Shown here one piece after another: positions 2,519-26,992 of a stretch of DNA of 32,672 nt. The position numbers and the translations under genes are program-made. The DNA is taken from positions 1-32,672 of the forward strand of contig LJUQ01000024.1 in assembly GCA_001304505.1 (NCBI GenBank). Direction: 5' to 3'. Below the pieces are notes generated by a model. It worked only from the letters and a program-made list of their open reading frames with translations, searched no databases and was not told where the DNA came from. Source of the DNA: Bacteroides sp. SM23_62_1. GTDB taxonomy: Bacteria > Bacteroidota > Bacteroidia > Bacteroidales > SM23-62. Position 1 is the stretch's first letter, and every line of letters starts with the position of its first letter.

Positions 2519-2677
2519 GATTTAAGGTTTAGGGCTTATTGCCTGGAAAAATTAATTGCCCGGATTTTTGATTATATGATACAAGTTATATAATATCTTT
2601 TTAATAATCAAGCAGTTTATTTTTTATTGGGTGAAAAAAGTCTTTTAGACTGTTTGGAAAGTTATCAGGTATGTAAG

Positions 2678-2781
2678 TCTGCAAGTCCACAAGTCTGCAA
2701 GTCTGCAAGTCTGCAAGTCTGCAAGTCCACAAGTCTGCAAGTCTGCAAGTTCACAAGTCTGCGAGTCTGCAAATCTGCAAG
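2678..2781 (+). repeat. 8-bp tandem repeat array, 13 units (TCTGCAAG family)
   Basis: Thirteen consecutive 8-bp units are readable. Eight are exact TCTGCAAG; two are TCCACAAG, one TTCACAAG, one TCTGCGAG and one TCTGCAAA. There are no spacers, so this is not a CRISPR. The variant units (2, 7 and 10) are interspersed rather than clustered, which suggests duplication of multi-unit blocks. The same phased CAAGnnnn pattern recurs at 25241-25280, 26001-26027 and 26462-26497. Confidence 0.95.
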
Positions 2782-2886
2782 ACTGAAGTTCAAAAAGACT
2801 GAAAGTCATTTTAATTGATAAAAACATCTTATCCTTCCCTTACTCCAACTTTTATCCAGTTCCCAATGCCCAAACACAAACCCGCC

Positions 2887-24470: not shown

Positions 24471-25991
24471 TTAAATCATAGGCCATTGTGACTGAGACCA
24501 GTAAAAATCCCAGTTTGGTCCCCTGAACCATATCCCTATTGACGTATATATTATTAATCCGGTCATGGCACATAGAAAAAGCGCAATGGCTGCCATCCTG
24601 GTTGATCCCGTCCTAGTTTTTATGAGGATAGACCATAAAATATAAAACAAGGCGGATAGTGTGCCCGGATTGATTATCATAATGATAAATCCGGGAATAT
24701 CACCAAACCATTCCCTGAACCAGCCAAATTTAACTGCGATAAATACCAGTATTACAGTTATTAAAAGAGAATACAAAATAGTGACTGCCCCAATCTTTAA
24801 TCCCTGTTTGCCGGAAAACCATATTCCCGAAAACCTGTCTTCTTTATCAATAAAAGGTATGGAGATCAGAAAAGCTATAAAAAGAAGTGGTATCAATAGT
24901 CCACCGGTAAAGGCAGAATAGGAAACCAGCTCCTGGATCCCAAGGAAATACCATGATGATTTTGCTGGATTCTCAGGAAAGGAAATATTTGCCTGTTCCC
25001 GAAGCGGAGCATCAAATACAAATGCCATGATCAGGATGATGGTTGTCGTAAAAAGTAGTAATGATAATTCTATCCACATCAGTACCGGCCAGGTATAAAT
25101 TCGCTTATCAGCACGCAATGTATCCTGATTCTTTGAACTTATAGATCCGTGGGCCTGAACCACCGGGGGCCTCTCCCTGTCCGGATCAGATCTATCCTGG
25201 AATTTTACATCATCAGACATCAAATTTCCGGCCTTGCTGTACTGCAGACTCGAGGGCTTGAGGACTTGAGGACTTGCAGACTCTTCTCTTAAGGGCCTGC
25301 TTAATCCTCCATCTTTGCGGATTCTCCAGAAATGCCAGCCTGTTAATACCATCAATGTTATGGGAAGGAATACCACATGAAGCATAAAAAATCGTGTAAG
25401 AGCAGTCTGTCCGACTGTTTCATCTCCGATTAATAATTTCTTGAAGAAGCCACCAATATCGAGGACATTTGTAATTCCAAGTATATCTGTCAGTTCCCTG
25501 GCCGAGGCCGCAATGTTTGACCCGATGGTAACAGCCCAGTAGGCCAGCTGATCCCAGGGAAGAAGATACCCGCTAAAACTCATAAACATTACCACCAGAA
25601 GCATGCAAATTCCAATAATCCAGTTCCATTTTCTTTTACCAAAATAGGAACCTGTAAGGAACGTCCTGGTTAAATGCAGGAATGTTACCAGCACCATACC
25701 ATGAGCAGCCCATCGGTGGATATTGCGAATATATTTCCCCCCTGGTACAACAAAAACTATATCTTTCACAGAATTGTATGCCTGTTCAACCGATGGAGTA
25801 TAGTTCATCATCAATATAAATCCAGTGATGATCATGATCAAGAAAAGAAAAGCCAGGATCACTCCGAGCCCAAAAGTGTAGGTAGGCCTCAATGCATGTG
25901 GGTGAATTTTTGGTGAATGGATATGAAGGAAGAAGTTCCGTGATATACGTTGTATTCTCTTTATGTTTATATTTTGAGAGTTCGTTTTCAT
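24471..25991 (-). CDS. Cytochrome b (b6/subunit IV-type fusion) of quinol:cytochrome c oxidoreductase
   Basis: The protein has 506 residues. The N-terminal half is b6-like, with haem-ligand His92 (NIHRWAAH) and His106 (FLHLTR), 14 apart, and His205 and His220, 15 apart, a b6-type spacing. SGYLLPWDQLAYWAVTIGS lies between them and contains part of the Qo site. The C-terminal half is like subunit IV, with ENPAKSSWYFLGIQELV in place of the PEWY motif (WYF retained). The two halves are joined by an unusually long hydrophilic linker (about residues 230-290). The part encoding S-A-S-P-Q-V-L-K-P-S-S-L-Q (about 238-250) is made of five 8-bp repeat units of the same family as the array at 2678-2781. 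The first half, second half and TM helices are otherwise intact, so the protein is probably functional. The octaheme gene follows 5 bp downstream. Confidence 0.95.
   Translation of the reverse strand: MKTNSQNINIKRIQRISRNFFLHIHSPKIHPHALRPTYTFGLGVILAFLFLIMIITGFILMMNYTPSVEQAYNSVKDIVFVVPGGKYIRNIHRWAAHGMVLVTFLHLTRTFLTGSYFGKRKWNWIIGICMLLVVMFMSFSGYLLPWDQLAYWAVTIGSNIAASARELTDILGITNVLDIGGFFKKLLIGDETVGQTALTRFFMLHVVFLPITLMVLTGWHFWRIRKDGGLSRPLREESASPQVLKPSSLQYSKAGNLMSDDVKFQDRSDPDRERPPVVQAHGSISSKNQDTLRADKRIYTWPVLMWIELSLLLFTTTIILIMAFVFDAPLREQANISFPENPAKSSWYFLGIQELVSYSAFTGGLLIPLLFIAFLISIPFIDKEDRFSGIWFSGKQGLKIGAVTILYSLLITVILVFIAVKFGWFREWFGDIPGFIIMIINPGTLSALFYILWSILIKTRTGSTRMAAIALFLCAMTGLIIYTSIGIWFRGPNWDFYWSQSQWPMI
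25241..25280 (-). repeat. Five 8-bp repeat units inside cytochrome b
   Basis: Read on the coding (minus) strand from 25280 down to 25241, the units are TCTGCAAG, TCCTCAAG (twice), CCCTCGAG and TCTGCAGT. They keep the same 8-bp phase (CAAG every 8 bp) as the array at 2678-2781. They lie in the linker between the two membrane halves, where added residues should be tolerated. Confidence 0.85.
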
Positions 25992-26000
25992 AATTTAAAA

Positions 26001-26027
26001 GAGGTCAAGGATTCAAGGGGTAAAAGG
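26001..26027 (-). repeat. Left arm of octamer repeats flanking the four-helix-bundle pseudogene
   Basis: On the plus strand CAAG recurs at 8-bp spacing (26006 and 26014), in an array reading GGTCAAGG, ATTCAAGG, GGTAAAAGG. It lies 9 bp before the cytochrome b start codon. TCAAGGATTCA (26005-26015) matches the reverse complement of 26464-26474 exactly over 11 bp. Confidence 0.75.
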
Positions 26028-26042
26028 ATTTCTTTTTTTCCA

Positions 26043-26408
26043 CTAATTAATTAAGGCTTTTAAAATTCTTTCAACTTCTCTGAGATCTTCATCGATATCA
26101 CCCAACACTTTTTTATCATGATAGTCAAGATCAGTTGATAGTAATTACTGTGTTTCCGGTTCGGATAATGATCCATAAGTAACGTGATACAAATAGATAA
26201 ATTCTGGTGTTGTTTTTCTGCCATATCCTTCCGCAATTTTCGTAGGCATTGAAACTGCTGAGCTTCTCATTTGCGCAACTAATTCAAATTTGTCTTCAGC
26301 CAGAAAATTTCGGGTACTCCTGTAAATATCAAGACATAGCTGGTAACTCTTTTGCCAGATGATTAAATCATCAAAAGTTTTGAGCATGATGATTTGATTT
26401 TTAATCAA
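26043..26408 (-). pseudogene. Four-helix-bundle protein (23S rRNA intervening-sequence/S23 type), premature stop
   Basis: The open part (26145-26408) encodes 87 residues: LKTFDDLIIWQKSYQLCLDI, then FLAEDKFELVAQMRSSAVSMPTKIAEGYGR and YHVTYGSLSEPETQ, the family signature. The probable start is the first ATG at 26408, or ATG 26387. A TAA at 26147-26145 ends it in the middle of helix 3. Reading on in the same frame gives L-L-S-T-D-L-D-Y-H-D-K-K and ...LREVERILKALIN, ending at TAG (26045-26043), the expected C-terminus. The total then equals about 121 codons, the normal family length. The usual residue here is Leu, and TTA to TAA is one base change. These proteins are named after open reading frames in 23S rRNA intervening sequences and also occur as stand-alone genes; function is unclear. 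It sits inside the bc operon between Rieske and cytochrome b. Confidence 0.9.
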
Positions 26409-26461
26409 TCTTTATTGAAATGATAAATAATATTTTGAAAAACTTTATGTTTCCCTTTCCA

Positions 26462-26497
26462 CCTGAATCCTTGAGTCCTCTAACCCTTGACCCCTTA
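26462..26497 (+). repeat. Right arm of octamer repeats flanking the four-helix-bundle pseudogene
   Basis: On the minus strand the arm reads as 8-bp units GGGGTCAA, GGGTTAGA, GGACTCAA and GGATTCAG, with CAAG-type phase. It begins about 3 bp after the Rieske stop codon. It is inverted relative to the left arm and shares an exact 11-bp block (26464-26474) with it. Confidence 0.75.
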
Positions 26498-26499
26498 AT

Positions 26500-26946
26500 T
26501 TAATTTGTCGCCAGAATATAATCTGAATCAACTGCTTCATCAAGATCCACGACAAGCTGCCCATCATAATCTTTATATAAACGATACCATGTAAGATCCT
26601 TGAAGGCTGCACCTGAGATTACTTCCCCTTTCTCATTGAAACAGGATCCATGGCATGGACATTGAAATCCATTGTCAGATTTTTCGATCACGCATCCAAG
26701 ATGTGTACAAATTGCAGATACAACTCTTAGACCCCCATGATCCCGGTATACAAATAATTTATGTTCAGACACATATGTAAAATCATTCAATGGGAACGAT
26801 GTTGGTCTGCCAATCTTAATTCTTTTATCTTTACGATAACCAGCCGGGAGAACCTGCCTGAATAAACTGATGAATGCCAGGAATCCTGCAACAGATGCAA
26901 GTATAAGGGATAAATGCCTGAGGAATGTTCTTCTCCTGTTTACCAT
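26500..26946 (-). CDS. Rieske [2Fe-2S] protein of the bc complex
   Basis: The protein has 148 residues from ATG 26946 (a TTG six bases upstream is less likely). The N-terminus VNRRRTFLRHLSLILASVAGFLAFISL has an RRxFLR twin-arginine-like motif and one membrane helix, as expected for a Tat-exported Rieske subunit. The cluster motifs are complete: CTHLGC and CPCHGSCF, supplying two Cys and two His ligands plus the disulfide pair. The rest (ISGAAFKDLTWYRLYKDYDG) fits the beta fold. It heads the minus-strand operon Rieske, (pseudogene), cytochrome b, octaheme c. The pseudogene insert increases the distance to cytochrome b to 508 bp. Confidence 0.96.
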   Translation of the reverse strand: MVNRRRTFLRHLSLILASVAGFLAFISLFRQVLPAGYRKDKRIKIGRPTSFPLNDFTYVSEHKLFVYRDHGGLRVVSAICTHLGCVIEKSDNGFQCPCHGSCFNEKGEVISGAAFKDLTWYRLYKDYDGQLVVDLDEAVDSDYILATN

Positions 26947-26992
26947 GGGCAAATATCATTTATTATGGGATTAAATTTATAAAGTTCCCTCA

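What the first reader, a model, noticed from the sequence alone, without database searches (positions are those of the whole stretch)
26001..26497. Four-helix-bundle gene as a cassette bounded by inverted octamer arms
The pseudogene is bracketed by repeat arms in opposite orientation that share an exact 11-bp block (26005-26015 and 26464-26474). The arms begin right at the Rieske stop and 9 bp before the cytochrome b start, so the whole gap looks like one inserted unit. Genes of this family are known as insertions in 23S rRNA, but mobility with such arms, as a stand-alone cassette, is to my knowledge not described.
Basis: partly seen in the sequence, partly recalled or inferred. Interest (0 to 1): 0.68.

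Follow-up and report, generated by a model that had tools for sequence, protein, structure and literature searches.

The report
Mobile four-helix-bundle cassette with inverted arms
Between two genes of a respiratory operon sits a roughly 500-base inserted cassette, a small helical-protein gene flanked by mirrored arms of 7-8-base repeats; the same design recurs at about two thirds of the related genes examined across many bacteria, including at sites where relatives have a clean empty junction, which suggests a widespread small mobile element that appears not to have been described outside ribosomal RNA genes.

Summary
Window 25992-26499 is an extra 508 bp between a Rieske and a cytochrome b gene that abut directly in six relatives. 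It holds a PF05635 four-helix-bundle (4HB, '23S IVP') gene with one nonsense codon, between inverted arms of short repeats. Eight of nine 4HB genes in this genome have such arms, each with its own unit. Of 148 non-redundant 4HB loci from many genomes (mostly Bacteroidota, a few from other phyla), 96 have them (20 in direct orientation). The 93 armed loci analysed share a strict anatomy: about 480 bp, AG every 7 nt in the left arm, usually lying in an operon from a stop codon to the next ATG, in sense. One genus shows an exact empty site in two species, the cassette in five, and a different cassette swapped in at the same site in one. Proteins are under strong purifying selection (dN/dS 0-0.15). 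Best reading: a small insertable, exchangeable cassette, a stand-alone relative of the 23S rRNA intervening sequence. How it moves, and whether the protein binds the arms, is inferred, not shown.

The parts
25992..26499 (-). Whole inserted unit between the Rieske stop and the cytochrome b start
   Evidence: Absent in six relatives, where the Rieske gene is directly followed by the cytochrome b ATG
26456..26496 (-). Arm 5' of the 4HB gene (G-rich strand TTAAGGGGTCAAGGGTTAGAGGACTCAAGGATTCAGG, read on the - strand)
   Evidence: Inverted repeat pairs I2-I4; score 29 against the other arm
25999..26023 (-). Arm 3' of the 4HB gene, complementary to the first (CCCCTTGAATCCTTGACCTCTT on the - strand)
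26043..26387 (-). Four-helix-bundle gene (PF05635 / TIGR02436), 115 codons from ATG to TAG, with one nonsense codon
26145..26147 (-). In-frame TAA that breaks the 4HB gene
26500..26952 (-). Rieske iron-sulfur protein gene (upstream neighbour in the operon)
   Evidence: PF00355
24471..25991 (-). Cytochrome b gene (downstream neighbour in the operon)
   Evidence: PF00033

Best explanation
It is a degenerate copy of a small insertable and exchangeable DNA cassette. The cassette is about 480 bp: a PF05635 four-helix-bundle gene bounded by two oppositely oriented arms built of short degenerate tandem repeats, typically heptads carrying AG on the coding strand of the 5' arm. SHOWN: (1) the two arms match each other at each locus while the unit differs between loci; (2) gene plus arms are absent as one unit from orthologous sites in relatives; (3) at two neighbouring sites in one genus whole cassettes are replaced by others between conserved flanks; (4) the cassette usually fills an operon spacer from stop codon to next start codon, in sense; (5) the protein is under strong purifying selection. 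INFERRED: it spreads as a mobile element. The ring-shaped 4HB pentamer probably recognises the oriented repeats at both ends, as multi-site end-binding proteins of transposons do, and an unidentified host or trans-acting activity moves it. In operon transcripts the arms can pair and loop out the ORF, as in the 23S rRNA intervening sequence that RNase III removes, which would make the insertion tolerable. The core (discrete insertable cassette) is about 0.9 likely, true mobility about 0.75, protein-arm recognition about 0.4, an RNA-stem role about 0.35.
For: Own genome: left/right complementarity scores 72, 38, 53, 29, 48, 48, 46, 47 at eight 4HB loci against at most 26 for cross-locus pairs. 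An unbiased scan of about 1.5 Mb from 12 genomes found three inverted pairs at that spacing, one of them around the only 4HB gene in the sample. Window site empty in 6/6 sister-genus genomes; three further sites have short array-free junctions. Genus g72 site 2: five species with the cassette, one with another cassette, two with an exact empty site whose missing stretch ends at the outer arm ends; a second cassette swap at site 1. Phylum survey: 90 of 118 genomes have the gene, up to 16 copies. 96 of 148 non-redundant loci armed inverted vs 20 direct; inverted beats direct 124:21, p=6e-19. Arms also seen in Ignavibacteriae, Acidobacteriota and CPR records. Polarity G>C 35:2 and 49:2. AG autocorrelation 0.59 at lag 7, at most 0.12 at other lags except 14. 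Neighbours both in sense 71, both antisense 7; dN/dS 0-0.15. Protein similarity and arm similarity correlate among non-orthologous loci (Mantel p=0.011).
Against: About a third of 4HB loci show no arms by this measure, including L009 in this genome. No transposase or RT lies in the cassette; the genome has no PF00078 match. No target duplication was resolved. Empty sites could be precise losses. Sense-strand G-U compatible mismatches are not in excess (108 vs 97, p=0.49), so RNA pairing is not shown to be what is selected. Within-species arm matching exceeds cross-species matching only modestly (33.7 vs 29.0). No copies identical in gene and arms at two unlinked sites of one genome were found.
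Confidence: 0.7

Rival explanations
1. The cassette is a passenger: the arms are terminal inverted repeats recognised by a transposase acting in trans, and the 4HB gene is carried along for another reason (MITE-like unit with cargo).
For: Arms coincide with the ends of the insertion; the cassette encodes no other protein; three Y1_Tnp matches exist in G000, a broken one about 1.5 kb from locus L002.
Against: Arms differ between loci of the same genome, which a single trans transposase would not tolerate easily; arm type tracks 4HB lineage to some degree; such arms were found around 4HB genes and hardly anywhere else.
Confidence: 0.2
2. The unit is a resident regulatory or RNA-processing module of operons (attenuator, RNase III site or mRNA stabiliser with its own RNA-binding protein), inherited mostly vertically; presence and absence reflect loss.
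For: Sense orientation in operon spacers (71:7), strong purifying selection, orthologous retention across genera at some sites, stem pairing of the arms in the window RNA.
Against: Whole-cassette swaps at conserved sites, copy number 0-16, sporadic sites with unrelated neighbours, no wobble signature, and in this genome three of five cassettes between co-directional neighbours lie antisense.
Confidence: 0.2
3. A 4HB gene happened to insert into a pre-existing short-repeat array or hairpin, in a genome full of such arrays.
For: This genome has about 110 free intergenic arrays per Mb with the same kinds of unit, and two gene-less hairpin pairs.
Against: Insertion into a tandem array gives direct, not inverted, flanks. 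None of the free arrays sampled has an inverted partner at gene distance apart from the 4HB loci. Armed 4HB genes also occur in a genome whose sampled DNA has no free arrays (G105). Arms are missing in relatives.
Confidence: 0.06
4. Chance similarity of AT-rich flanks.
For: The window copy alone is weak (score 29; 0.7% of random positions reach it).
Against: The same feature at 8 of 9 loci in the genome and 96 of 148 loci overall.
Confidence: 0.02

Closest known systems
23S rRNA intervening sequence (IVS) with S23p / 23S_rRNA_IVP ORF, e.g. Coxiella burnetii IVS (PMC4990558)
   Same: Same protein family in the middle, about 430-480 bp, complementary termini; the Coxiella 5' arm carries tandem heptamers GACAGAT, which also put AG every 7 nt upstream of the ORF. 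Termini form a stem with the ORF in the loop.
   Different: Here it is not in rRNA but in spacers of protein-coding operons, in many sites per genome, with locus-specific units; in the orthologous groups tested the protein is strongly conserved rather than decaying; excision by RNase III is untested.
Insertion sequences and MITEs with terminal inverted repeats
   Same: Discrete unit with inverted ends, presence/absence polymorphism, many copies.
   Different: No transposase, no demonstrated target duplication, ends are degenerate repeat arrays that differ from copy to copy.
Diversity-generating retroelement Avd protein
   Same: Distantly related four-helix-bundle protein (weak NF033474 match for some members; homology noted in PMC10053308).
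   Different: No reverse transcriptase in this genome; template and variable repeats were not searched for.
Intergenic heptamer arrays (TAACTGA repeats of Beggiatoaceae, Cyanobacteria, Bacteroidetes; PMC4679880)
   Same: Arrays of 7-mers in intergenic DNA.
   Different: Those are direct repeats, usually a single array near a start codon, with only one inverted case reported and no mention of 4HB genes.

Membership tests
23S rRNA intervening sequence (IVS) | ORF of the S23p / PF05635 family | tested here: met
   PF05635 95.6 bits, TIGR02436 above cut-off
23S rRNA intervening sequence (IVS) | Complementary termini enclosing the ORF | tested here: met
23S rRNA intervening sequence (IVS) | Located in a 23S rRNA gene (helix 25 or 45) | tested here: not met
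   Lies between Rieske and cytochrome b genes
23S rRNA intervening sequence (IVS) | Excised from the transcript by RNase III without religation | not testable with these tools
   Needs RNA experiments
Insertion sequence / transposon | Encodes a transposase | tested here: not met
   Only the 4HB ORF lies in the 508-bp insert
Insertion sequence / transposon | Terminal inverted repeats at the exact ends | tested here: met
   Missing stretch at the g72 empty site ends at the outer arm ends
Insertion sequence / transposon | Target-site duplication | tested here: inconclusive
   Possible AAATTA on both sides in the window, but AT-rich; none obvious at the g72 site
Diversity-generating retroelement | Reverse transcriptase | tested here: not met
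   No PF00078 match in the genome; draft of 92% completeness
Known structured RNA family | Rfam match | tested here: not met
   No match at gathering threshold for 25900-26600

The most novel reading that the evidence does not exclude
Most stand-alone PF05635/TIGR02436 genes of bacteria are the single gene of a previously unrecognised class of mobile elements whose ends are oriented heptad arrays recognised by the encoded ring-shaped four-helix-bundle protein; the 23S rRNA intervening sequences known since the 1990s are just the members that landed in rRNA.
Probability: 0.45. Interest if true: 0.87.

Novelty: new variant of a known kind. Interest (0 to 1): 0.74.

Why it matters
The S23/IVP family has had no known function since it was found in rRNA insertions, although its genes are common in Bacteroidota (90 of 118 genomes surveyed here). 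A defined cassette with known ends, empty sites, exchange at fixed sites and a heptad rule gives a testable handle on what the protein binds and how these units spread. It also suggests that operon spacers carry a class of roughly 500-bp insertion that mobile-element annotation based on transposases would miss, with possible effects on operon expression.

Tried and rejected
Insertion of the gene into pre-existing arrays: rejected because arms are inverted, occur in a genome whose sampled DNA has no free arrays, and are absent at empty sites. A link between free-array density and 4HB number: first suggested by G000 versus G001/G006, not upheld with five more 4HB-rich genomes. RNA-pairing selection through G-U wobble asymmetry: no signal. 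RT-driven mobility in this genome: no RVT_1. Arms as a fixed property of the gene lineage: L001 and L005 are 70% identical proteins with different arm units, while L007/L071, L001/L078 and L003/L139 share units, so linkage is partial. Synteny for loci 1, 5, 6 and 7 of this genome: no clean orthologous junction found.

Full report
CHECK OF THE OBSERVATION. The window is contig 90 of a 4.74-Mb draft genome, taken to be Bacteroidota because the nearest named relatives of its 4HB proteins are mostly of that phylum (inference). Between the Rieske gene (26500-26952, minus strand) and the cytochrome b gene (24471-25991, minus) lie 508 bp. They contain a PF05635 four-helix-bundle (4HB) gene with a single in-frame TAA, bracketed by inverted arms. 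The exact 11-mer at 26005-26015 / 26464-26474 is present. The arm alignment scores 29; 0.7% of random positions in this genome do as well, so this copy alone would be only suggestive.

OTHER COPIES IN THE GENOME. The genome has nine PF05635 loci. Aligning each left flank with the reverse complement of each right flank gives 72, 38, 53, 29, 48, 48, 46 and 47 on the diagonal for eight loci, with a cross-locus maximum of 26. Each locus has its own unit: GTTCAAGG, GCAAGTCT, GTGAGTC, TCAAGGAT, GGTTGTC, TTGTCGCAA, TTGTTAAA and AGCAGGG (by eye). The ninth (L009) has no arms. In a 0.65-Mb sample the genome also has many free arrays, but inverted partners 100-1500 bp away were found only at the 4HB loci. 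A wider unbiased scan of about 1.5 Mb from 12 genomes found three inverted pairs, one of which encloses the only 4HB gene in the sample.

EMPTY SITES. In all six genomes of the sister genus the cytochrome b ATG directly follows the Rieske gene with no intervening DNA. Three more loci (FMT/LysM-hydrolase, DUF5723/RtcB, transporter/LiaF-like; names by eye from sequence) have short junctions without arms or gene in those genomes. Five of six sister genomes have no PF05635 match; the sixth has one, related to the armless L009. The cleanest case is in another genus, g72, between a thiolase-like gene and a PaaY-like gene. Five species carry one cassette, one carries a different cassette, and two have an exact empty site with a few bp between stop and ATG. 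The missing stretch begins and ends with the arms. At the next site about 1.6 kb away, three species carry cassette A and one carries cassette B. The gene is about 60% identical at protein level and the arms are of another type, while most flanking windows are above 90% identical. The unit that is present, absent or exchanged is therefore gene plus both arms.

HOW GENERAL. In the phylum sample 90 of 118 genomes have the gene, up to 16 copies, and none of 14 control genomes does. Over 148 non-redundant loci, 96 have inverted arms at score 28 or more against 20 direct, and inverted beats direct 124 to 21 (p=6e-19). Named relatives with arms include records from Ignavibacteriae, Acidobacteriota and CPR bacteria. 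Some of these are MAGs, whose binning was not checked.

ANATOMY. In 93 armed loci the cassette has a median of 482 bp. An upstream co-directional stop codon lies near the left-arm start in 80. A downstream ATG begins within -7 to +84 bp (mostly 0-20) of the right-arm end in 73. Neighbours are both in the sense of the 4HB gene in 71 and both antisense in 7; in this genome, though, three of the five cassettes with co-directional neighbours are antisense. In the left arm AG recurs at 7 nt (59% of AGs) and 14 nt (54%) and hardly at other spacings. The left arm is richer in G than C in 35 of 41 and in 49 of 53 loci, poorer in 2 and 2. The published Coxiella IVS has heptamers GACAGAT in its 5' arm upstream of the same kind of ORF (PMC4990558), which obeys the same rule.

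EVOLUTION. Orthologous 4HB genes show dN/dS between 0 and 0.15 (14 pairs), so the protein is maintained in those lineages, unlike the window copy. Protein and arm similarity correlate weakly among non-orthologous loci (r=0.13, Mantel p=0.011). Within-species arm matching (33.7) exceeds cross-species matching at the same site (29.0); the clearest concerted changes are at swapped sites. Mismatches show no sense-strand G-U bias (p=0.49), so nothing here shows that the complementarity is selected at RNA level.

MECHANISM. Shown: a discrete, insertable, exchangeable unit with inverted arms as its ends. Inferred: that it moves. The ring-forming 4HB protein (nearest solved structures 2GSC and 2RLD; pentameric ring of Xcc0516 as cited in PMC4990558) is a good candidate to bind the oriented repeats; that is not tested. 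Also inferred is that the arms pair in the operon transcript (the window RNA folds so, MFE z-score -2.05) and are handled as in the rRNA IVS. The agent of movement is unknown: the cassette has no transposase, the genome no detected reverse transcriptase.

COMPARISON AND NOVELTY. It works like, and shares its gene with, the 23S rRNA IVS, but fails the defining rRNA location, so it is filed as a stand-alone variant of that kind. In the paper library used, few papers mention the family at all and none found describes such arms outside rRNA; most subscription literature could not be searched. Two CRISPR surveys list 23S IVP genes near cas loci or arrays.

LIMITS. About a third of loci lack recognisable arms; gain versus loss at empty sites is inferred from distribution; the genome is a draft with 7% contamination; the sample favours one subfamily; the score threshold of 28 was chosen after seeing the first loci, and cross-locus controls at that threshold run from about 2% to 10% depending on the set.

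Noticed in passing
window 25243-25283: An 8-bp repeat array (GACTTGAG/GACTTGCA type) lies inside the cytochrome b reading frame, in a linker of about 50 residues that does not align to relatives (matches break near residues 236 and 293).
   Followed up: partly
window 2675-2789: Free array AAGTCTGC, about 14 copies, intergenic, without a 4HB gene.
   Followed up: no
L019-L058 (own-genome sample): About 110 free intergenic 7-9-bp arrays per Mb in this genome; none in samples of the sister-genus genomes G001 and G006.
   Followed up: partly
L044:8840-8926 and L048:7768-7868: Gene-less inverted array pairs with 18-29 bp loops (TTGTTAAA/TTTAACAA): possible emptied cassettes or terminators.
   Followed up: no
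L009 (contig 65) and L068: A 4HB gene next to tRNA genes, without arms, conserved at DNA level with the only 4HB gene of G002: a different, apparently resident member.
   Followed up: no
L038:10490-11400: Two copies of a REP-like palindrome (CAGATTTATATcAGGCC..GGCCTGATATA) flank a sigma-factor-like gene.
   Followed up: no
G000 contig 62:22704-23003: A broken Y1 transposase (PF01797) about 1.5 kb from 4HB locus L002.
   Followed up: no
L301: In a Ca. Harrisonbacteria record the arm unit is a 12-mer, ATAGATGCTGCT, rather than a heptad.
   Followed up: no
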